A stretch of DNA of 64,000 nucleotides, taken from NCBI RefSeq assembly GCF_000001735.4, contig NC_003070.9:24413971-24477970 (forward strand). Direction: 5' to 3'. The position numbers were made by a program, and so were the translations under genes. How positions within the stretch are numbered: position 1 is the stretch's first letter; each line of letters begins with the position of its first letter. Origin of the DNA: Arabidopsis thaliana (Eukaryota; Streptophyta; Magnoliopsida; Brassicales; Brassicaceae). This document shows positions 32,153 to 47,768 of this stretch, piece by piece. The notes beneath the pieces were generated by a model, which worked only from the letters and a program-made list of their open reading frames with translations, did no database searches and was not told where the DNA came from.

Positions 32153-32640
32153 CATTCTTTTTTTTTTTTTTAGAGTTTGGTTTTTAATTTTCTACGTTTC
32201 TTTGTCTAGTTTTAATTGGCTTTTTAGGTCCTCATGTGTCTGTCTTTAAGTTGGTGGTTTCTTTTCTTTCTACTCAAATATGTAAAAAAAGGGAATGAAT
32301 GAATTATTTGGTTTTCTGGTTTCTCTGTTCTTCTCTTCTTACTCTTAATACTAAGGAGAAACAAACTTGAACTTAATCTGAGACTAATGTAGCTAAGTTA
32401 ACACATTGTAGTTTAATTCAAACTAAATTAACACAATGAGAGTTTGATAGATTGCTCAAATCTACTTGAAAAATCTTAAACATTTGGAAGAAAATTAAGG
32501 TTTTACAAATTTTATACATGTCATAGATTAAGTTTGGAGGCAAGAATACAAAAGTAAATCCTTACCGAAAATGAAGATGAAAATTAAGGTTTATTTATTG
32601 AAGATGACTGGTATTCTTAATAGAAAAAGAAAAGGTAGCT
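32153..32640. other. YSL7 3' flank and start of F-box cluster
   Basis: 3' UTR side of YSL7; from ~32560 the sequence resembles the 3' flank of the F-box genes further right (GATGACTGGTATTCTTAAT against the same motif at 38070 and 46630). Confidence 0.5.
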
Positions 32641-33062
32641 TTGACCTAAACAAGATTCAGAGAAAGCTAGGAACAAACATTTGGAAACAACTCTGCGAAA
32701 GTTCTGACATTATCTCAATACTACCATTACCATTGGTCCATTGTCTAGCTTAAATATATCCTTGTTGTCTGTGAAGTAAATAGAGTTTTGAAGGCATCCG
32801 TAAAACTCATGAGCCAAAACCGAGAAACAAGTATCGGTAGCAATCACAAACGCATTGTCTCCCAATGACTTAACTTCTATCCATTTTGCTAATGTAAAGC
32901 TCTCCACAACATTCCACATAGCTCTTTTCCATAAATATCTATTTGTGATGGTTTCAAGAATAATGGTCCGTACTCAGATGATTTTAAGAGAAGAATTAAT
33001 CAAAAAAAAAAACACCTTTTAAATCCAAGGCGTAAGTTCGACCTTTGTGGATTATGATTAAA
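32641..33062 (-). pseudogene. F-box/DUF295 gene fragment (3' end)
   Basis: On the minus strand 32920 to ~32700 encodes the C-terminal DUF295 signature of the local F-box family ([33 protein letters not shown], then [17 protein letters not shown]). A further piece at ~33015-33062 matches the LDSKG-type segment that lies ~110 codons earlier in intact paralogues, so the middle is deleted. The N-terminal F-box is absent. Coding potential is lost; closest in-window relatives are the genes at 38126-39241 and 46686-47768. Confidence 0.85.
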
Positions 33063-33141
33063 TAAAAATTGCTTAAACCTCTATATTTGTAACTTGTAAG
33101 TACAAACACTATATATGGAGTATCAGTTTTTTTGTAGTTTA

Positions 33142-33507
33142 GGGGGTGATATTCAATCATAGATCTTAGTAGAACTAAAATCTAGCACTAATCTACTGTT
33201 ATTCAGTTAATGATTCTAAATTGGATCTTATATTTGTAAATCATGTTTAATAGATTTTAAAGTTTGGTGTTATTCAACTAAGATTTTAAATTCTTCATAA
33301 AAATTATGTGTTATTCAAAACTTGTAAAAAATCTTTGTATATTAATTCATTTGAAATGAAGTCACTTTGGAGTTTCATGTGTAAATTATTAAAATCAAAA
33401 TCAAAGATATTTTGAAATTCACACAAACAGATTCTTAAATACAATATCAGGAAACAAATCTTGACCTTTAAGAATTAACTTTAACTTCATGATTGGATAA
33501 CACCACC
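33142..33507. mobile_element. 366-bp MITE, PIF/Harbinger-like (TTA target site)
   Basis: The ends are inverted repeats: left GGGGGTGATATTCAATCAT, right (reverse complement) GGTGGTGTTATCCAATCAT, 16 of 19 identical. Flanking TTA trinucleotides at 33139-33141 and 33508-33510 form the duplication typical of PIF/Harbinger elements. The interior is AT-rich, non-coding, with GTTATTCA repeated several times. Paralogous F-box flanks at ~41745-41760 and, reversed, at ~35020-35035 and ~39590-39605 read straight through GTTTAGGGAAGTC with a single TTA, which is the expected empty site. Confidence 0.85.
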
Positions 33508-33814
33508 TTAGGGAAGTCAACCCAAAATCTGTATTTTCCAGAAAAAGAGAATGTAATAATCCTACAAATATGAAGTCCAGCACATTACACGCACTTTATA
33601 CAACAAATGATGAACCATGAAACAATTTATGGTATAGAATCTCATTGAATATGAATGAATATTATTTAGCAATTTAGCACTAATATTTTCCATTTAGATT
33701 CAATGTATTCGTTTTCATTGTTGGGAATGGGTTGATTTTTTATATATATATAGTTTCTTATTTCTCAAAAAGTTACAAACACAACCAAAGTAGCAATACT
33801 GATAAAAGAGAGAA

Positions 33815-33955
33815 ATGGAAGTTTGGTCTAACTTAGTGGGAGAGCTCTTCCACTTGATTGCCATCCGACTGTTTCTCCATCGTCAAACTCAAACGTTTCA
33901 GTAGCGTTTTCACCCTTGGTGCTCCTATGTTTTCGACGTGAACAAACAAATTTTA
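33815..33955 (+). pseudogene. F-box gene 5' fragment (left arm)
   Basis: ATG at 33815 begins MEVWSNLVGELFHLIAIRLF, recognisable against [20 protein letters not shown] of the intact paralogue at 39241. A stop appears about 30 codons in, and similarity is lost after ~140 bp. No DUF295 part follows. Non-functional remnant. Confidence 0.75.
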
Positions 33956-33959
33956 TAAC

Positions 33960-34112
33960 AATTAAGGAAAGGAGTGTTCTTGTTCACAACGGAAACAGAT
34001 GAGCACAAAGATGTGCAGATGCTACTGAAAACGTTTTGACTTTGACGATGGAGAATAGTCTGATAGCGATTAAATGGAGAGGCTCCTCCAGTAACTTAGA
34101 CCAATCTACCAT
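33960..34112 (-). pseudogene. F-box gene 5' fragment (right arm)
   Basis: Reading leftward from an ATG at 34112: MVDWSKLLEEPLHLIAIRLFS, the F-box start of the same family, about 50 codons long with a shifted end. It is the mirror partner of 33815-33955. No downstream domain; non-functional. Confidence 0.75.
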
Positions 34113-34534
34113 TTCTCTATTTATCCGTTTTACTATTTTGGTTGTTTATGATTTATGAGTCACATAATATATGAATCAATTACCGAATCATCACTTTTCC
34201 AGCCAAATTATCAGTTTTAGTACGTTTGTTAATGCTTGTTGTTATCAGTTTTGGCAAACAGAAAGTCGTTTTTACCCTTATCATCAGCTGAAGAAAAAAT
34301 AATAATGTTCTTTTTTTTTTCAGTAGACGACAAGAAATTTAAGCTCTCTTTTACTTAATCTCACATGAAAATCTAAAGAGTGGAACCAAAACCCATATTT
34401 TGATAATCATGTCAATTGGAGCCCTTGGGTTTAGTAGATATCATGCCCTTAGGGTTTAGTTTCTTTTATTCCAAAGAAATTAATTGAATCTATTGAACTC
34501 ATCAAAGATGGTTTGAACTTTTAGTTGAAACGTA

Positions 34535-34697
34535 AAACTCCTTATATATTTTTTTTTGGATAACTGAGGTGATTCTAAAGACTTTCGAGGTCCAAAAATT
34601 AATCTTGGGGTCTAGAGAAACCATGTTAGATGTTGAACCCGATAACCAATGCTGCTCGAAACACTAGACCTAGGCAACTTGGTTAAACTCCTTACAT
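34535..34697 (-). mobile_element. tRNA-derived SINE with target duplication
   Basis: On the minus strand a ~137-bp body (34548-34684) starts near GGTCTAGTGTTTCGAGC (A-box-like, 34654-34670), carries a B-box-like GGGTTCAACATC (34629-34640) and ends in an A-run (T-run on the plus strand, ~34548-34558). It is bracketed by near-perfect 13-bp direct repeats, AAACTCCTTATAT (34535-34547) and AAACTCCTTACAT (34685-34697). Pol III boxes, A-tail and target duplication are the SINE hallmarks. The paralogous flank at ~39312 has the target (AGTCCTAACATTTT) without an insert. Family name not assigned. Confidence 0.75.
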
Positions 34698-36060
34698 TTT
34701 AGGCTACAAATGGTGTGTTTTTAACCTTTGAAGAAATTATAAATATAAAAATAAATTCACACATTTCCCATAAATTAAAATGAATACATTAAAACTAAAT
34801 GCAAAATATTAATGCTAAATTGCTAAAGAATAGTACATTAAAACTAGATGAAAAATATTAGTGCTAAATTGCTACAAAAATATCTATTGAGATTCTATTT
34901 GATTTTATACCATTAATGGTTTTCAAGGTTCATCATTTTTGGAATAAATCCAGTATAATTTGTAGAATTACTAAATACTCTCTCAATCTCTTATAAAAAA
35001 AAAAGTTGTGTTGACTTCCCTAAACTACACCAAAACAGGGACCCCATAGTGGTTGTACTTATAAACGTTTTTGTGGTTTGAATATTTTTGAAGCATTAAT
35101 AAATAATTTATTATCAGAATTGAATCGATTGACATGTTGTGTTGGATTAGGGATTTAAAGATTTTATTTGTTTGATTTAGGTGATATTTATGATATTTCA
35201 AAGATTTATTATTATTATTATTATTTAAATCTCATCAGTTATTTAGTTTAAATAAGAAATTTTGGAGTATTTTGTGCGATATCAGCCTTTTTTTCTCCAT
35301 TCGCCACTACATTTTTTTGAATGCTATTTTAGGTTGTTCAACCATAACATTAATTAAATGGTATGTTCGATTCAATGGTAGCTCATTATTTACGCCACGA
35401 TATATAACGTTGTAGCATTTTATTGATACTATTTTTTTCAAATAAAATTGACACATTTTACATTTTATATTTAATATATTTTTATATAGACTAAATTTGG
35501 TCATAGATATATATTTTAAATATATTTTTTCATAAAAATTACATATAAAGCATAACAAGTCTTACAAAAGAGTAATCCATTTTAGCTTTTTGGTTTGCTA
35601 TTATAGGGCTTAGCATTGTTGAAATGCTATGATATAGTTATCAGATTCAAATCCCAAATACTATCTTTAATAGCAATTATGAAAACCATGCTATCCTAAT
35701 ATGCTATTAATGTTCATATTTTTGTAAAATTCATTAAAGCCATGTGAGTCTAGCAAGATGGGAAATAATATGATCTTTCGACTTAAGGATTTTTTCAATA
35801 ATCTTGATTTGATTCATTAAACACTCTTACTTTTTTTTTGACGGTTAAACATTCTTACTCATAGTGAGAATAACTACATATCCTTGCTTATTCTCACACA
35901 AACATTCTTACTCATAGTGTATATTTCTCTTTGCTTATTCTCACTATATATCCTATACTATAACTTGAAAAGTTCTGGCTTATTGTAATAATGATATTGA
36001 CTAGCATTCGTTGCAACAACTTATTATATAATGTGGAACAACCATTGCCATTGTCAATCA
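34698..36060. other. F-box upstream flank and AT-rich DNA
   Basis: 34698-35045 is the duplicated upstream block of the F-box family (shares TTTTATACCATTAATGG and ACTACACCAAAACAGGGACC with 39460-39620). 35046-36060 is AT-rich with ATT runs at 35205-35225 and no recognised gene. Confidence 0.5.
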
Positions 36061-38125: not shown

Positions 38126-39241
38126 TCAAAGAAAGCTAGGAAAAAACATTTCGAAGGAACTCTCGGAAGATTCCGACTTTCTGGTGATACTACTTCCATT
38201 ACCATTGTCTAGCTGGAACACCTTAGGCTCTAAATCCTCAATGAAGTAAATAGAGTTTGGGAGGCATCCGTAATACTCATGAGCCAAAACCGAGAAACAA
38301 GTATCGGTAGCCATCACAAATGCATTGTCTCCCAAGGTCTTAACTTCTACCCATTTGGCTAATTCCTTATCTATCTTGTAAACCTTGAAACCAGCCGTTC
38401 TTGAAAATTGAAATAAGGTCGATTTTCTCTTTCGAGAATTCTCTTTGGGGAGGCGTTTGATAACGTAAAGCTCTCCACAGCAATCCACAAATCTCATGTA
38501 ATATCTCCTACAGCCATTAGTCATGTTTTCATCGAGTGAAGTTTCGTACCTTGACATTTCAAGATCGGAATTAATGCACCAAACGATGCCTTTTGAATCC
38601 AAGACGTAAGTTACTCCTTTGTGAACTATAATGTCGGAGAAGTGATGACCCATTTGTTTGAATCCGTTCAAGACATTTCCATTCCAGTAGTTGATTGTTC
38701 CATCCCTACCGATTCCGAGAATTCCATGATGATGATCATCTCCTTCCTTCACTTTGACAAGAGCACTTCTTTGGTATCCTGGATTCGGTAGTCTTCCCTT
38801 GGCGTCCTTAAGAACCGCATAAGATTCTTGAATCTCGGAGACAGTGAAATCCAAAAGATCAAGGCTCTCGGAAGAAATACGCAATGGAAAACGTGAGAGA
38901 GGGTTGAGGAGATGGAATCTCCCGGAGTTGGTGTCCATGTCGGATTTGATTATCCAGCCCTTACTCGGAGAGGAGGAGAGAGTGACTCGGAAGAAGGCTG
39001 CACGTGAGAGGAACGCGCCGGGGTTGCAGCTGAAGACATGGTCCTCTAGAAGGGTCTCACTTGGGGCGATGGGGTTGAAGTCAATGAGAGGGCGCCTATG
39101 GAAAGGATTCTTCTTCACGCCGGAGACAGAGGAGTGCCATGATACACAGATGCTGCTGAAACGCTTGTATTCAACTAGGGAGAACGATCGGGCGGCGATA
39201 AAATGGAGGAGCTCCTCCGGTAAGGTAGACCAATCTACCAT
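38126..39241 (-). CDS. F-box/DUF295 protein
   Basis: Intronless, 371 aa, corresponding to At1g65740. F-box at residues ~3-45 ([33 protein letters not shown] region) predicted to bind ASK1 in an SCF ubiquitin ligase; the remainder is a DUF295 beta-propeller-like domain with family blocks [54 protein letters not shown] and [21 protein letters not shown]. It ends in FEMFFPSFL, the family's C-terminal motif. The TATA-like CATAATATATATATA lies at ~39276-39290. Closest relatives are in this window (46686-47768, 44621-45745). The substrate is unknown; AMR1-like regulation of ascorbate synthesis is possible only by analogy. Confidence 0.92.
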
Positions 39242-40480
39242 TTTGCTACTTTGATTGTTTGTGATTTGTGAGTCACATAATATATATATACTACGTATAC
39301 TTACCTAAAAGTCCTAACATTTTAGGTTCCAAATGGTTGTGTTTTTAACTTTTAAAGAAACAATAAAATATAAAATCAAAATTCACTCATTCCCATAAAT
39401 AAGAATGAATACATTGAACCTAAATGAAAAATATGAGTTCTAATTTGCTAAAGAATATTAATTCATATTCTATTCGATTTTATACCATTAATGATTTTCA
39501 TGGTTCATCATTTGTTGAATTGAAATTTAATAGCAGTACTTAAAGAGTAAATACTCTCTCCATTTGTAGACAAAAATATTTTGGGTTGACTTCCCTAAAC
39601 TACACCAAAACAGGGACCCCAAATAGTGTTTGTACTTAGGCAAAAAGATTTAATTATGTTTCATAGGTGATTGATTATATATTCTAAATAAACAAAAACA
39701 AAAGCCCAACAAATATATGAGACTAAGACACAACAAATCAAAAATGAATAATAAATGTTACAAATTTTAGGGTTAAAGCCTTTGTAAAAATGACTTTTAG
39801 AATGACAATTTGACCAACTAACAGAAAATTATTGATTAGTGTGGCACCCAAAATTATTACATAAAATGTGGCCTTGGCACAAATCGTGTATTGTTTTTGC
39901 GATAAGAGAACAAATCCATAGCAAACGTTTGTAACGCAGTGAAAGGAAGATTATTAGAGCATCCTTATTGATGGTCTCTTAACACAATTCTTATGTTAAG
40001 AGATATGTCTTATAACTAACAAATGTCTCTTATTGACTTGAAAGTAGCCTGGGTCTAGTGAAGTCAACCAAATAATTTCGATGTCTTTTTCCTTGTTTCT
40101 TAAGAGATTTATTTTTTGCTTTACCATGCCTTTTTTATTAATTAATTATGACGAATCATAAACTTTTAAAAAATATTGATTGTAAATAATTTATTGTATA
40201 AAATTACTATTGGTTTAAAGTAATAAAGAAACAAATTAATACCAAAAATAATATTTATATTTAAATATTAATTAATTTTTTTAATATATGTGAAAACTCA
40301 TAAAATCAATCATTCCAAAACAGAGAGAGTAGTAAACTTTTGCGGACGTGACTTGATTTAATGTTTTCTACACTTCTGTTATGATACCAAAGATGAAGAT
40401 ATTGTAGTTGCTGTGTGTGTCTATACCGAAAATGAAGCTGAAACGTAAGCTTTTTTATTAAAGATGATTGGTACTCACAA
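39242..40480. other. F-box promoter and duplicated upstream block
   Basis: 39242-39620 is the promoter and conserved upstream block shared with the other F-box units. At ~39955-40100 there is a repeat-like segment (GAGCATCCTTATTGATGG, inverted TCTCTTAACA / TGTTAAGAGA), then AT-rich DNA. From ~40365 the 3'-flank motif of the F-box family begins (GATACCAAAGATGAAGATAT). Confidence 0.5.
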
Positions 40481-40785
40481 TTATAAAGAAAGCAGCTTTG
40501 ACCTAAAACAAATTTCAGAGAAATCTAGGATAAAACATTTGGAAAGAACTCTGAGAAAATCCTGACATTGTTGCGATATTACTTCCATGCCATTGTCTAG
40601 CTCGAACACCTTAATCTCTCTCTCGTCATCTGTGAAGTAAATAGAGTTTTACATCATCCATAAAGCCAAAACTGAGAAACAAGTAACAGTAGAATCAAAA
40701 ATGCCTTGTCTCCCAAGGAATTAACCTCTATCGTTTCACCTAATTCCTCTTCGAACTTATAACCTTGAAACCGACTGTTTGGGAA
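40480..40785 (-). pseudogene. F-box/DUF295 3' fragment, cut by a LINE tail
   Basis: The minus strand shows a decayed DUF295 C-terminus: codons for LDNGMEVI, a YFTDDEREI-like stretch and SLGDKAF-type block are visible with several small indels and stops. Similarity to intact paralogues ends abruptly at ~40785, where LINE-derived RNase H sequence starts. Non-functional. Confidence 0.75.
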
Positions 40786-41200: not shown

Positions 41201-41940
41201 GTATGTTTGGAGGAAGTTTATCTGGTTATGATAGAGGATGTTAGTGAGATATCGATCCCACATAATGTTTGAATAAAATTTATATTTCGTTATTAAATAA
41301 AATGTAGGAGAAAAATCTCGTACAATCTACCAAAAATAATGTAACATATACCGATGTGCGTACATAGAAGATATTGCTTTTTACTAATTTCGGCTTTTTG
41401 CCACTGAGTAAATAAAACTTGAAAGTAGTTATTTTAAATAAATTTCTAGTCAAAAGTTATCCCTTCAATCTCAATTGGATATATCTCTCCTTTCTTATAT
41501 TTCCATTTCGGCTTGTATTTCTTAAAATTAAAACTAAAACTGATGAGATTTACTTTTCTTTTCTTTTCTTTTTTGTTTTTAAAAGAATACATAACAACCT
41601 AATAAATCTCTGAAATATCAAATCCCTAATCTAATACAATCTGTAAATCAAGTTAATTCTGATAATAAATTATATATTAATGCTTCAAAGATATCCATAC
41701 CACAAAAAAGTAAGTATAAACAATAAACACTATATTTGGTGTTTAGGGAAGTCAACCCAAAATCTTTCATCTAGAAATGGAGAGAATATTTTGTAATGCT
41801 ACAAATTTTCAAGTCCAGGCCAAAACATGCATCTATCCCACAATGATGAACCATGAAAACCATTTATGGTATAAAATCCAATTGAATTTAAATTATTATT
41901 TTTAAAGCAATTTAGCACTAATATCTTGCATTTAGGTTCA
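41201..41940. other. AT-rich spacer and F-box upstream block
   Basis: 41201-41740 has no recognised feature. 41745-41940 is the conserved upstream block of the F-box family on the plus strand (GGGAAGTCAACCCAAAATCT ... ATGATGAACCATGAAAACC ... GCATTTAGGTTCA), interrupted at 41940 by a LINE. Confidence 0.55.
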
Positions 41941-44444
41941 CTCTATGAGAAGAAAGAAAGGGAGTAAGGGTTGGATGCTTCTAAAGCTGGATTTAGAGAA
42001 GGCCTATGACAGAATAAGGTGGGATTTTTTGTCAGATACGCTTGTCGCAGCAGGGTTTTCTGAGGTCTGGGTGACTTGGATAATGCAGTGTGTTTCAGGC
42101 CCGGATATGAGCTTGCTATGGAATGGTGAGAAGACTACACCTTTCAAGCCATTGCGAGGTCTGAGACAGGGTGATCTTTTGTCCCCGTATTTGTTTGTGC
42201 TGTGCATGGAGAGACTCTGTCATTTAATTGAAAGATCCATCAATGCTAAGCAATGGAAACCGATTAATTTGTCGCGTGGGGGGCCGAAGCTCTCACATAT
42301 TTGCTTTGCAGATGATCTGATTTTATTCGCAGAAGCTTCAGTAGAGCAAGTACAGATCGTAAGGAGAGTGTTGGAAGCGTTCTGTACTGCCTCGGGTCAA
42401 AAAGTTAGCCTTGAGAAGTCCAAAATCTTCTTCTCTAAGAATGTCTCCAGAGAGTTAGGCAAATTGATAAGTGATGAGAGTGGGATACAATCAACCTGTG
42501 ATTGGGGAAGTATCTTGGAATGCCTGTTCTTCAAAAGAGAATTAATAAAGATACCTTTGGGGAGATCTTGGAGAGAGTTTCATCCCGCATGTCTGGTTGG
42601 AGAGAAAAGACGTTGAGCTTTGCGGGCCGGTTAACACTCACGAAAGCAGTCTTATCCTCGATGCCGGTTCACTCTATGAGTACAATTCTGTTGCCGCAAT
42701 CTATTCTGAATCGACTTGACCAACTATCCCGGACCTTCTTATGGGGAAGTACAGCAGAGAAGAAAAAGCAGCACTTGGTAAAGTGGTCAAAAGTGTGTTC
42801 ACCAAAGAAAGAAGGAGGTTTAGGAGTCAGAGCGGCTAAGAGCATGAATAGAGCACTTATCTCTAAAGTGGGTTGGAGGTTGCTCCAAGAGAAGAATAGC
42901 CTCTGGACCTTAGTTTTGCAGAAGAAATACCACGTTGGTGAAATTAGGGATTCACGTTGGTTGATTCCTAAAGGGAGTTGGTCTAGCACTTGGAGAAGTA
43001 TTGCAATTGGTCTAAGAGATGTGGTATCGCATGGAGTTGGTTGGATTCCTGGTGACGGTCAACAAATAAGGTTTTGGACTGATAGGTGGGTGTCGGGTAA
43101 ACCGTTGTTAGAGCTTGACAATGGTGAGAGACCTACAGATTGCGACACAGTGGTAGCCAAAGATCTGTGGATACCTGGTCGGGGTTGGGATTTTGCGAAG
43201 ATTGACCCTTATACTACGAATAACACACGGCTGGAGTTGCGTGCGGTGGTGCTGGATCTAGTTACGGGAGCTAGAGACAGATTGTCTTGGAAGTTTAGCC
43301 AGGATGGACAATTCTCAGTGCGGTCTGCTTATGAGATGTTAACGGTGGATGAGGTTCCAAGACCAAACATGGCAAGCTTCTTTAACTGTTTATGGAAGGT
43401 TAGAGTGCCAGAAAGAGTTAAGACGTTTCTATGGTTAGTGGGTAATCAAGCTGTTATGACAGAAGAGGAACGACATCGGAGACATCTTAGCGCCTCGAAT
43501 GTGTGTCAGGTTTGTAAAGGTGGAGTTGAATCTATGCTCCACGTGCTTAGGGACTGTCCAGCTCAATTGGGGATTTGGGTCAGAGTTGTGCCGCAAAGGA
43601 GGCAGCAGGGTTTCTTTTCGAAATCTCTGTTTGAATGGCTCTATGATAATCTGGGGGATAGGAGTGGCTGTGAGGATATTCCGTGGTCCACCATTTTTGC
43701 GGTGATAATATGGTGGGGGTGGAAGTGGAGATGCGGGAATATTTTTGGGGAGAACACGAAATGCAGGGATCGTGTGAAATTTGTTAAAGAATGGGCTGTG
43801 GAAGTGTATAGAGCTCATTCAGGTAACGTTTTGGTCGGGATTACGCAACCTAGAGTTGAAAGGATGATTGGTTGGGTGTCTCCATGTGTGGGCTGGGTGA
43901 AAGTGAACACAGATGGGGCGTCTCGTGGAAATCCGGGGCTGGCTTCTGCAGGCGGAGTACTACGAGATTGTACAGGAGCTTGGTGTGGTGGCTTCTCTCT
44001 AAATATAGGCCGCTGCTCCGCTCCACAGGCAGAGTTATGGGGAGTGTATTATGGATTGTATTTCGCATGGGAGAAGAAGGTACCTCGAGTGGAGTTGGAG
44101 GTTGATTCAGAGGTGATAGTGGGTTTTCTCAAGACAGGGATTAGTGACTCTCATCCGCTGTCATTCCTGGTGCGGTTGTGCCATGGCTTTCTACAGAAGG
44201 ACTGGTTGGTCCGAATTGTTCACGTGTATAGAGAAGCTAATCGTCTTGCGGACGGATTAGCAAACTATGCATTTTCGTTATCTTTAGGCTTTCACTCTTT
44301 TGATTTGGTTCCCGATGCGATGTCATCTTTGTTGAGGGAGGATACTCTTGGGTCTACCCGACCAAGGCGAGTTCGTTTGTAATTTTCTTTAGTTTCTTAA
44401 TAAATCACGGGAGGCAATTGTCTCCCGGTCACTTACCAAAAAAA
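41941..44444 (+). mobile_element. 5'-truncated LINE (non-LTR retrotransposon)
   Basis: The element starts inside the reverse transcriptase (KLDLEKAYDRIRWDFL), continues through LRGLRQGDLLSPYLFVLCME and the catalytic FADDLILF, then a zinc-ribbon-like region (CQVCKGGVESMLHVLRDCP) and a C-terminal RNase H (VNTDGASRGNPG, AELWGV, REANRLADGLAN), ending at a stop at 44382 and an A-run at 44438-44445. The endonuclease and 5' half are missing, as usual for LINEs. Two overlapping frames (41945-42616, 42502-44382) join near 42505, where a single missing base separates CDWG from GKYLGMPVL. Otherwise long open frames suggest a fairly young copy. It interrupts the upstream block of the F-box gene at 44621. 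Confidence 0.93.
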
Positions 44445-44620: not shown

Positions 44621-45745
44621 ATGGTTGATTGCGATTGGTCTAACTTACCGGAGGAGCTCCTCCACATGATCGTCCTCCTATTATTCTCCGTAGTCGAACT
44701 GAAACGTTTCAGGAGCATTTGCAGATCTTGGCGCTCCTCTACTTCGGGCGTGAACAGGAACAATCCTTTCCCTAGTCGCCCTCGCATCCACTTCGATCCC
44801 ATCGACCCTAGCGAAACCCTATCATCCGATGATTCCTACATTAGCAGACCCGGTGCGTTTCTCTCACGCGCCGCCTTTTTCCGAGTCACTCTCTCCTCCT
44901 CCTCGAGCAAGGGCTGGATGATCAAATCAGACATGGACATCAACTCCGGGAGATTCCGTCTCCTCAACGTTCTCTCACGTTACCCGTTGCGTCTTTATTC
45001 CGAGAGCATCGATCTTTTGGAGTTCACTGTCTCCGAGATTCGAGAAGCCTACACGGTTCTTAACACTGCCAAGAGAAGATCAGCAACTAAAGGATACCAA
45101 AGAAGTGCTCCTGTCAAAGTCAAGGAAGGAGAAGGTCATCGTGATGGAGTTCTCGGAATTGGTCGGGATGGGAATATCAACTACTGGGATGGAAATGTCT
45201 TGTCGGAACTTAAACAAATGGGTGATCATTTCTCCGACATTATAGTTCACAAAGGAGTAACTTATGTCTTGGATTCAAAGGGCAATGTTTAGCTGATAAA
45301 CTCCGATCTTGAGATCTCTAGGTTTGGAACTTCACTCGATGAAAACATCACTGATGGCTGTTGGGGAGACTTGAGATTTGTGGAAGGCTGTGGAGAGCTT
45401 TATATTGTGGAGCGCCTTCCGAAAAATACCCGAAAGAGAAAAGCTGGGGACTTTTTTCACAACTCACGAACGGTTGGTTTCAAGGCTTACAAGATGGATG
45501 AGGAATTAGCAAAATGGATAGAAATTAAGACCTTGGGAGACAATGCGTTTTTGATGGGTACCGATACTTGTTTCTCGGTTTTGGCTCATGAGGTTTACGG
45601 ATGCCTACCAAACTCTATTTACTACACCGAGAATACATGGCCTAAGGTGTGCAAGCTAGAGGATGGTAATGGAAGTAGTATCATCGTAACAATGTCGGAG
45701 TCTTCTAAGAGTTCTTTCGAAATGTTTTATCCTAGCTTTGTCTGA
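44621..45745 (+). pseudogene. F-box/DUF295 gene with one internal stop
   Basis: Collinear with the 371-aa gene at 38126-39241. F-box [32 protein letters not shown], the [20 protein letters not shown] block, then [20 protein letters not shown]. The codon at 45290-45292 is TAG where paralogues have TGG (Trp). The same frame stays open after it through [31 protein letters not shown] and [21 protein letters not shown] to FEMFYPSFV (45745). Without the stop it would encode ~374 aa. As it stands, a 223-aa protein with the F-box but half of DUF295 could be made, or it is a recent pseudogene. Its promoter is also separated from its usual upstream block by a LINE. Corresponds to At1g65760 by position. 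Confidence 0.85.
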
Positions 45746-46685: not shown

Positions 46686-47768
46686 TCAGAGAAAGCTAGG
46701 AACAAACATTTGGAAACAACTCTGAGCATAAGGATATATCGTTGTCTCGATACTACTTCCATTACCATTATCTAGCTTGAACACCTTAATCATGGTATCG
46801 TCGGTGAAGTAAATAGCGTTTTCAAGACATCCGTAAAACTCATGAGCCAAAACCGAGAAACAAGTATCGGTAGCTATCACAAATGCCTTATCTCCCAAGG
46901 ACTTAACCTCCATCATTTTTCCTTGTTCATCATCAAACTTATAAACCTTGAAACCGACCGTTTTCGCATACTCATACCCGGTGTCGTCAGCTTTTCTCTT
47001 CCAAGTACTCTCTCCAACAAGTCTTTCCACAATGTAAAACTCTCCACAACATTCCACAAGTCTCCTATCTCCGGTCCAGTCACCAACTAGAGGTCCAAAC
47101 CTAATGAATTTAAGATCAGAACGAATCCAGTAAACAATGCCAATTGAATCCAAGGCGTATGTTTGCCCTTTGTGAACTATAATGTCAGAGAATTCATAAC
47201 CCTCTTCTTTGGCTTTCCATGTTTTTATGTCCCAGTACATCATCTTCCCGGTACTGCGAATTCCAAGAACCTGATTATCTCCTTCCTTGTCTTTAACAAG
47301 AGCCACTCTTTTGAATATAGGCCTTGTTTCTTTTCTCGTACGCCAGTCATGAACCTGATAAGCTTCTCGAATCTCGGTGATAGTGAACTCTGAAAGATCG
47401 ACACGCTTGCGCGAATGCTCCATCGGAAGGCGAGAGAGCGGGTCGAGGAGATGGAGTTTCCCGGAGCTGACGTCCACGTCGGATTTGATAAGCCAGCCCT
47501 GGCTAGGAGAGGAGGAGAGAGTTACACGGAAGAAGGCAGAGCGTGAGAGAAACTCGCCGCGTCGGCGATGGTCGGTGAGAGGTTTGTTTGGGTTAGGATT
47601 GAGGAGGATTAGAGGACGGGTCCTGAAAGGGTTTTTCTTGCCGGCGCCGGGAACGGAGGAGCGCCATGAACGGCAGATGCTACGGAAACGTTTGAGTTCA
47701 ATGTTAGAGAACAAGCGACCGGCGATCATGTTGAGGAGATCCACTGGTAAGGTAGACCAATCAGCCAT
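46686..47768 (-). CDS. AMR1: F-box/DUF295 protein, ascorbate pathway regulator
   Basis: Intronless, 360 aa, matching AMR1 (At1g65770, ascorbic acid mannose pathway regulator 1), reported as a negative regulator of L-galactose/mannose-pathway genes so that loss raises vitamin C. F-box at residues ~3-45 ([33 protein letters not shown] region) for SCF assembly; DUF295 follows with [71 protein letters not shown] and terminal FQMFVPSFL. A TATA-like CATAATATATAG is at ~47814-47823 in the right orientation, ~50 bp before the ATG. It is the most divergent of the three local full-length copies and has no visible defect. Confidence 0.92.
   Translation of the reverse strand: MADWSTLPVDLLNMIAGRLFSNIELKRFRSICRSWRSSVPGAGKKNPFRTRPLILLNPNPNKPLTDHRRRGEFLSRSAFFRVTLSSSPSQGWLIKSDVDVSSGKLHLLDPLSRLPMEHSRKRVDLSEFTITEIREAYQVHDWRTRKETRPIFKRVALVKDKEGDNQVLGIRSTGKMMYWDIKTWKAKEEGYEFSDIIVHKGQTYALDSIGIVYWIRSDLKFIRFGPLVGDWTGDRRLVECCGEFYIVERLVGESTWKRKADDTGYEYAKTVGFKVYKFDDEQGKMMEVKSLGDKAFVIATDTCFSVLAHEFYGCLENAIYFTDDTMIKVFKLDNGNGSSIETTIYPYAQSCFQMFVPSFL

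What the first reader, a model, noticed from the sequence alone, without database searches (positions are those of the whole stretch)
33139..35045. Large inverted repeat of F-box promoters and 5' ends carrying two datable insertions
Seen directly: two F-box 5' fragments face each other (33815-33955 plus, 33960-34112 minus), and their upstream blocks continue the mirror symmetry out to GGGAAGTCAAC at 33511 and GTTGACTTCCC at ~35020. The left arm ends at a MITE and the right arm contains a SINE. Both are absent from the mirror arm, so they arrived after the inversion. If transcribed, the RNA would fold into a ~190-bp hairpin with F-box coding sequence, a possible source of small RNAs against the intact F-box genes at 38126, 44621 and 46686. 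The small-RNA role is inference.
Basis: partly seen in the sequence, partly recalled or inferred. Interest (0 to 1): 0.7.

Follow-up and report, generated by a model that had tools for sequence, protein, structure and literature searches.

The report
Decayed F-box gene palindrome, Arabidopsis chromosome 1
Two broken front ends of an F-box gene, each with its promoter, face each other as an old, decaying mirror-image repeat next to the imprinted gene UCL1; its RNA would fold into a long hairpin, but there is at most a weak hint that the hairpin is kept for a purpose.

Summary
The inverted repeat is real. In what I take to be Arabidopsis thaliana chromosome 1, two F-box 5' fragments with promoters face inward over about 2 kb. 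Arms are 75-77% identical (K2P 0.28-0.30), slightly more diverged than UCL1 from AT1G65760 (0.24-0.26). RNA of 33770-34160 folds to -181 kcal/mol, z -18.5. Corrections: the MITE (33142-33507) interrupts the left arm, which continues to about 33094; the right arm holds a SINE-like element plus an unidentified insert of about 350 bp; the 'intact' gene at 44621 has an in-frame stop; an AMR1-type F-box 3' half abuts the left arm. A second F-box palindrome lies on chromosome 5. Both are nearly symmetric at the centre, favouring fold-back duplication, but trees are nearly star-like. In-silico fold-backs of other paralogue pairs overlap the native stability; against this, the stem is relatively less diverged than the promoters would predict. 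Small RNAs, transcription and sister species could not be examined. Verdict: decayed relic of the inverted-duplication type that gave MIR163 and MIR846, perhaps a weak siRNA source. Side lead: the published UCL1 imprinting-control interval overlaps the AT1G65760 copy of the same promoter block.

The parts
32563..33058 (-). Decayed F-box 3' half, AMR1 type, abutting the left arm; taken as a separate relic of the same gene array
   Evidence: blastn 32563-32881 to 40424-40732 and 33015-33058 to UCL1/AMR1 coding sequence; tblastn and tree place it with AMR1, support 74, within an AMR1-type clade, support 100
33094..33141 (+). Outer tip of the left arm, beyond the MITE, ending in the TTA target duplication
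   Evidence: 33094-33144 mirrors 35064-35018 at 76% and 33097-33144 matches UCL1 39638-39593 at 81%
33142..33507 (+). MITE of TTA/TAA-TSD type (Tourist/Harbinger-like; class recalled), inserted in the left arm
   Evidence: terminal inverted repeats and TTA duplication; relatives, 10 of 11 examined with TTA or TAA duplications (read by eye); 14% diverged from the consensus of 11 relatives
33508..33814 (+). Left arm: F-box promoter block and leader, TATATATATATAG at 33741-33753
   Evidence: matches 39598-39334, 41743-41946 and chr5 9857448-9857672 at 76-78%
33815..33955 (+). Left arm: F-box 5' coding fragment, about 46 codons, frameshifted
   Evidence: matches UCL1 39243-39111 at 71%; frame break seen in the alignment
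33946..33965 (.). Centre of the palindrome (loop; approximate ends)
   Evidence: BLAST matches of the arms end at UCL1 positions 39111 and 39097-39100, 11-14 bp apart
33960..34112 (-). Right arm: F-box 5' coding fragment
   Evidence: 33963-34172 matches UCL1 39097-39285 at 71%
34113..34172 (-). Right arm: leader and TATA region
   Evidence: alignment to UCL1, AT1G65760 and AMR1
34180..34525 (.). Unidentified insert in the right arm, not seen in the other copies of the block (approximate ends)
   Evidence: gap between matches to 39285 and 39308; only 60-90 bp of it recurs, at four other places
34551..34683 (-). SINE-like element with box-A/box-B-like motifs (motifs recalled), A-tail and repeated AAACTCCTTA flanks
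   Evidence: sequence; two relatives at 74-76% over 105-117 bp
34700..35260 (-). Right arm: F-box promoter block, with a 49-bp tandem duplication at 34785-34879 and a perfect CArG box at 34910
33764..34159 (.). RNA hairpin potential, either strand
   Evidence: -184.4 kcal/mol for 33760-34171; -181 and -172 for the two strands of 33770-34160, z -18.5 and -16.3
41620..41946 (+). Paralogous promoter block of AT1G65760 (weaker similarity continues to 41517), split from its gene by the LINE; overlaps the published UCL1 imprinting-control interval (about 41241-41941)
   Evidence: perfect CArG at 41860

Best explanation
An old inverted duplication of the promoter and first about 46 codons of a UCL1-type F-box gene, made by a fold-back (template-switch) type event inside a tandem F-box array, and since decayed by point mutation, small deletions and three insertions. 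Because both promoters point inward, leftover transcription from either side would make a hairpin RNA that Dicer-like enzymes could cut. The locus is built like a proto-MIRNA, but it most likely drifts, with perhaps some exchange between its arms, and at most yields a low level of small RNAs. Shown: the anatomy, the divergence and the predicted fold. Inferred: the fold-back origin, transcription and Dicer processing.
For: Arms and fold. BLAST matches of the two arms end 11-14 bp apart on the parent gene, which independent breakpoints in genes of about 1.1 kb would rarely give; for the chr5 palindrome they end 4 bp apart on UCL1. The best trees pair the two arms, though with support of only 50 and 45. 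Stability of the native fold is within the range of 28 in-silico fold-backs from other paralogue pairs (6 of 28 at least as stable). The left arm keeps a TATA-like stretch before its ATG.
Against: Sister relation of the arms is not significant: of 15 five-taxon topologies 10 are not rejected, 7 of which separate the arms, and in the promoter part left-right is among the most diverged pairs (0.282; closest of seven pairs in 2 of 2000 bootstraps). Pure drift of the stem is in doubt: stem/promoter divergence of left-right is 1.07 against 1.14-1.79 for six cross pairs, below their mean in 1944 of 2000 bootstraps and below all six in 1041. The left arm folds better with the right arm than with any of four other partners, in both orders. 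Some 21-mers match UCL1-family mRNAs better than unrelated DNA does. One genome only.
Confidence: 0.5

Rival explanations
1. Two different convergent F-box paralogues lost their facing 3' halves in one deletion, leaving a tail-to-tail hairpin (as recalled for rice LGC1, and like the juxtaposition of related sequences proposed for MIR846); later exchange between arms may have made the stem more alike.
For: Genes of the array lie in both orientations; AT1G65760 and AMR1 are convergent today. In the promoter part the right arm is closest to UCL1 (0.193) and the left arm to chr5 and AT1G65760 (0.230, 0.257), not to each other (0.282). Topologies separating the arms are not rejected.
Against: The arms stop 11-14 bp apart on the parent gene. 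In the coding test the tree in which both palindromes are joins of different paralogues is rejected (p-AU 0.030); the chr1-only version is not rejected but weak (p-AU 0.077).
Confidence: 0.28
2. A working small-RNA locus that represses UCL1-family F-box genes in trans.
For: Strong hairpin; inward promoters; 22, 23 and 11 of 742 21-mers with target score <=4, against none in five control segments; relatively low stem divergence. Young F-box-targeting Arabidopsis miRNAs are known (miR774, miR859; passages of PMC1790633). Rfam's long-hairpin models hit both palindromes with small E-values: MIR7533 1e-8 and 4e-8, MIR5380 2e-7.
Against: No unusual stability; longest unbroken run of pairs 13; right-arm promoter separated from its TATA region by about 510 bp. 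The Rfam hits are far below the gathering scores (53.3 and 51 of 230; 47.6 of 150; MIR3932 27.9 of 150), so they show hairpin shape rather than family membership. The best-paired bin of the stem is not a clear peak (15-19 of 20 in the inner bins).
Confidence: 0.12
3. One interrupted gene: the relic 32563-33058 is the 3' half of the right-arm gene, and the left arm is an inverted insert inside it.
For: The relic lies on the same strand in collinear order with UCL1.
Against: The relic groups with AMR1 (support 74, within an AMR1-type clade at 100), whereas the right arm is 71-80% like UCL1 and 59-65% like AMR1.
Confidence: 0.05

Closest known systems
MIR163 (Arabidopsis)
   Same: Inverted duplication of gene-family sequence that also took along the promoter of the gene of origin, so the fold-back starts life with a promoter (statement seen in PMC1790633, section 8 part 1).
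   Different: MIR163 makes a defined miRNA; here no small RNA is known to me and both arms carry a promoter.
MIR846 (Arabidopsis)
   Same: [quoted passage not shown] the same question arises here.
   Different: Jacalin-domain family; makes a miRNA.
Endogenous inverted repeats such as IR71 (name recalled; only in the listing) and proto-MIRNAs found by DCL1 RIP-seq
   Same: Intergenic fold-back transcripts bound by DCL1, most regions giving mainly 24-nt RNAs (section 31 and passages of PMC12825306).
   Different: Those have RNA evidence. Whether this locus is in that paper's supplementary tables was not seen.
PAI1-PAI4 inverted repeat and rice LGC1 (both recalled, no call)
   Same: Gene inverted repeats that silence homologous copies through dsRNA.
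   Different: Those arms are nearly identical (recalled); here the arms are about 25% diverged.

Membership tests
Inverted gene duplication (fold-back) of MIR163/MIR846 origin type | Two arms in opposite orientation, both similar to members of one gene family | tested here: met
   both arms match UCL1, AT1G65760 and AMR1
Inverted gene duplication (fold-back) of MIR163/MIR846 origin type | Transcript folds into a stem-loop better than shuffled sequence | tested here: met
   z -18.5 and -16.3; 0 of 100 shuffles fold as well on each strand
MIRNA gene | Discrete 20-22-nt miRNA/miRNA* pair seen in small-RNA libraries | not testable with these tools
   No small-RNA reads available
MIRNA gene | miRNA region more conserved than the flanking arm sequence (test used in PMC1790633) | tested here: inconclusive
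   Left-right K2P 0.303 in leader plus coding part, 0.282 upstream, but the ratio is low beside six cross pairs in 1944 of 2000 bootstraps. In 20-nt bins over 33780-33939 pairing is 15-19 of 20, and 13 of 20 in the two end bins. One genome only
MIRNA gene | Match to a known precursor family | tested here: not met
   5 hits at E<=1, all under the gathering score (best MIR7533 53.3 of 230, E 1e-8; MIR5380 47.6 of 150)
Hairpin-siRNA locus with trans targets | Complementarity to target mRNAs within plant scoring limits | tested here: inconclusive
   22, 23 and 11 of 742 21-mers pass score 4; no expression data

The most novel reading that the evidence does not exclude
The UCL1-type promoter block is a duplicated regulatory unit of imprinting. 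One copy (41620-41946) makes up about half of the mapped UCL1 imprinting-control interval and holds a perfect CArG box at 41860. The copies in this palindrome (one with a perfect CArG box at 34910) are recruited the same way, so the palindrome is transcribed in endosperm into a hairpin that tunes UCL1-family dosage.
Probability: 0.05. Interest if true: 0.75.

Novelty: new member of a known kind. Interest (0 to 1): 0.3.

Why it matters
As a decayed palindrome it is ordinary for plant gene arrays. Two points have some value. The UCL1 F-box subfamily may have made such palindromes more than once (chr1 and chr5), which fits the birth-and-death model of young microRNA genes. And the published UCL1 imprinting-control interval overlaps the promoter of the neighbouring gene, a diverged inverted copy of UCL1's own promoter, which gives a concrete element to test for Polycomb or MADS-box recruitment.

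Tried and rejected
Tried: a single interrupted gene for relic plus right arm (disfavoured by the AMR1-type tree). A common origin of the chr1 and chr5 palindromes (borderline, p-AU 0.050, not formally rejected). A known Rfam precursor family (5 hits, all under the gathering score though three with E below 1e-6). A named annotation at the chr5 place: I recalled the tag AT5G27807 and searched it; passages in two papers name it MIR164C, and I did not pursue its position. Paper searches on F-box fold-backs, inverted repeats and proto-miRNAs (listings of 25 of 4,210, 15 of 74, 12 of 28 and 10 of 34 papers, titles and starts of abstracts only): I saw none that names this palindrome, which does not show that none exists. 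In one search (3 papers with at least two of five gene names) only PMC4331533 held At1g65740 and At1g65760; its main text has no 'siRNA', 'small RNA' or 'inverted'. In PMC6914339 the words UCL1, AT1G65740 and F-box do not occur in the main text. PMC2808329 (passages) gave no link to this array. (bacterial promoter scan) was of no use. The tree command failed and was rerun.

Rows left out: AMR1 was left out of the five-sequence topology test and (K2P part), because its promoter hardly aligns; the chr5 right arm was left out of the promoter alignment because no promoter match was found beside it. In some searches MITE relatives were used, those with locus ids, of the 33 matches (window copy included). 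The folding controls differ in base composition and most of the best ones (5 of the 6 at or below -0.471) pair UCL1, AT1G65760 or AMR1 with each other.

Full report
What was checked. The window is C1:24413971-24477970 of a 119.7-Mb genome of seven contigs. From size, contig lengths and published gene order I take it to be Arabidopsis thaliana Col-0 chromosome 1 (inference; YSL7 and AMR1 are names recalled, UCL1, At1g65750 and At1g65760 are also in PMC4331533). The inverted repeat is there. blastn finds 33781-34145 complementary to itself at 74.7% (E 7e-55). The promoter parts 33595-33707/34834-34948 and 33660-33759/34731-34832 match at 82-83%, and a far tip 33094-33144/35018-35064 at 76%. A joint alignment gives 76.5% over 306 upstream columns and 75.3% over 170 leader and coding columns.

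Anatomy. Left to right: an AMR1-type F-box 3' half on the minus strand (32563-33058); the left arm tip; a MITE at 33142-33507 with TTA on both sides, of a family in which 10 of 11 relatives examined have TTA or TAA on both sides (read by eye); the left promoter block with TATATATATATAG at 33741-33753; an F-box 5' end from ATG 33815 to about 33955; a centre of roughly 15-20 bp; an F-box 5' end on the minus strand from ATG 34112; its leader to 34172; an unidentified insert (about 34180-34525); a SINE-like element (about 34551-34683) with A-tail and repeated AAACTCCTTA flanks; and the right promoter block with a 49-bp tandem duplication. The right arm shares about 200 bp more with the AT1G65760 promoter, to about 35260, whereas detectable similarity of the left arm and of UCL1 stops near the same earlier point. 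So the left arm does not end at the MITE, and I count three insertions rather than two.

The array. UCL1 (38126-39241, minus) and AMR1 (46686-47768, minus) are open reading frames of 371 and 360 aa; AT1G65760 (44621-45745, plus) is stopped in frame at codon 224. Another AMR1-type 3' half lies at 40381-40780. A LINE at about 41947-44442 splits the AT1G65760 promoter; PMC4331533 describes it in Col-0 and En-2 and its absence in Ler, RLD and C24 (section 6).

A second palindrome. A genome search with 33500-34120 brought up a chr5 place that holds the same promoter block and an F-box 5' end that turns back on itself: 9857882-9858173, 74% self-complementary; the stretch L004:1841-2260 folds to -175 kcal/mol, z -12.5. 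BLAST matches of its arms end at UCL1 positions 39033 and 39037, 4 bp apart, and at the same AT1G65760 position 44821. It lies between two stretches that look like Helitron 3' ends (CTAG|T; pattern recalled); 34 of the 46 matches fall in the right one, while of the left one only the last 20 bases were in that query. In the chr1 palindrome the arms end 11-14 bp apart on UCL1. Such symmetry is natural for a fold-back copy and unlikely for two independent deletion ends in genes of about 1.1 kb (my rough estimate is a few per cent for chr1; not simulated).

Origin and age. Trees are almost star-like. In the promoter-plus-5'-end alignment the two chr1 arms group at support 50; in the coding alignment at 45, with the two chr5 arms at 67. 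Of the 15 five-taxon topologies, 5 are rejected by the AU test and 10 are not; 7 of these 10 separate the arms. In the coding test of seven trees the best tree pairs both sets of arms (p-AU 0.92), three other two-event trees have 0.19-0.32, a shared origin of both palindromes 0.050, a paralogue join on chr1 only 0.077, and joins in both 0.030. But the promoter part alone speaks otherwise: right arm to UCL1 0.193, left arm to chr5 0.230, left to right 0.282. So two separate fold-back events fit best overall, without certainty; exchange between arms of a joined pair could give the same picture. Arm divergence of 0.28-0.30 equals about 20 million years at a recalled rate of 7e-9 per site per year, older than the recalled split from A. 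lyrata. The window MITE is 14% from the consensus of 11 relatives that are themselves 1-4% from it, so it too is old, and its arrival cannot be told apart from the time the arms separated.

Function. Both strands of 33770-34160 fold far better than shuffles. In-silico fold-backs from other paralogue ends reach the native stability: native -0.471 and -0.449 kcal/mol per nt; 6 of 28 controls at or below -0.471 and 8 of 28 at or below -0.449, range -0.321 to -0.525. Five of those 6 pair UCL1, AT1G65760 or AMR1 with each other; all 8 controls that use the left arm are weaker than both native orders. The longest unbroken run of pairs is 13, and pairing is even along the stem. Target scoring passes 22, 23 and 11 of 742 21-mers for UCL1, AT1G65760 and AMR1, and for the chr5 hairpin 14, 33 and 0 of 800; five control segments gave none. 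A result against plain drift: stem-to-promoter divergence of left-right is 1.07, lower than 1.14-1.79 in six pairs of an arm with another copy, below their mean in 1944 of 2000 column bootstraps and below all six in 1041. This is a weak sign, found after looking, and fits arm-to-arm conversion or mixed ancestry as well as selection. No small-RNA, RNA-seq or methylation data and no other plant genome could be searched.

Comparison. PMC1790633 (passages and section 8 part 1) describes 16 young Arabidopsis MIRNA loci with evidence of birth by inverted duplication from coding genes, MIR163 with its gene-of-origin promoter, and MIR846 as possible juxtaposition of related copies; it calls decay perhaps the most common fate. 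The present locus fits that fate best. PMC12825306 (passages and section 31) reports intergenic proto-MIRNAs from regions giving mostly 24-nt RNAs; its supplementary tables were not seen, so I cannot say whether this locus is among them.

Side lead. PMC4331533 (abstract, section 6 and section 9 part 1 read, passages by word) maps the UCL1 imprinting control region to 2.0-2.7 kb upstream of the ATG, which is window 41241-41941 if counted from 39241. About half of that interval is the AT1G65760 promoter block 41620-41946, of which 41735-41946 is a 75% inverted copy of UCL1's own promoter. Of four perfect CC(A/T)6GG boxes in the window (4.4 on average in 20 shuffles), one lies there (41860) and one in the right arm of the palindrome (34910); the chr5 copy is perfect too, and the homologous sites in UCL1 and the left arm have one mismatch. 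PHE1, a regulator of paternally expressed genes, binds CArG-like motifs (passages of PMC6914339). Since the number of boxes is at chance level and the 1.0-kb fragment with UCL1's own block gave bi-allelic expression in that paper, this is a lead only.

Noticed in passing
C5:9857448-9858175 (L004 1501-2228): Second F-box fold-back with promoter block, arms ending 4 bp apart on UCL1, next to Helitron-like ends; best target scores to AT1G65760 and UCL1 (1.0) are better than those of the window hairpin.
   Followed up: partly
41241-41946: About half of the published UCL1 imprinting-control interval is the AT1G65760 promoter block, an inverted paralogue of UCL1's own promoter, with a perfect CArG box at 41860.
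   Followed up: partly
40381-40780 and 32563-33058: Two AMR1-type F-box 3' halves on the minus strand, each with a plus-strand UCL1-type promoter to its right (a LINE fragment lies between in the first case); may reflect a duplicated module.
   Followed up: partly
45290-45292: In-frame stop in AT1G65760 (codon 224), frame continues to 45745.
   Followed up: yes
34180-34525: Unidentified insert in the right arm; only 60-90 bp (about 34414-34503) recurs, at four other places in the genome.
   Followed up: no
33781-34145 against 33508-35061: Left-right divergence of the stem is low beside that of the promoter parts when compared with other pairs of copies; conversion between arms, mixed ancestry or selection could explain it.
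   Followed up: partly
L004 1440-1500 and 2540-2700: Helitron-like 3' ends on both sides of the chr5 F-box fragment (pattern recalled), compatible with capture by read-through of a Helitron end.
   Followed up: no
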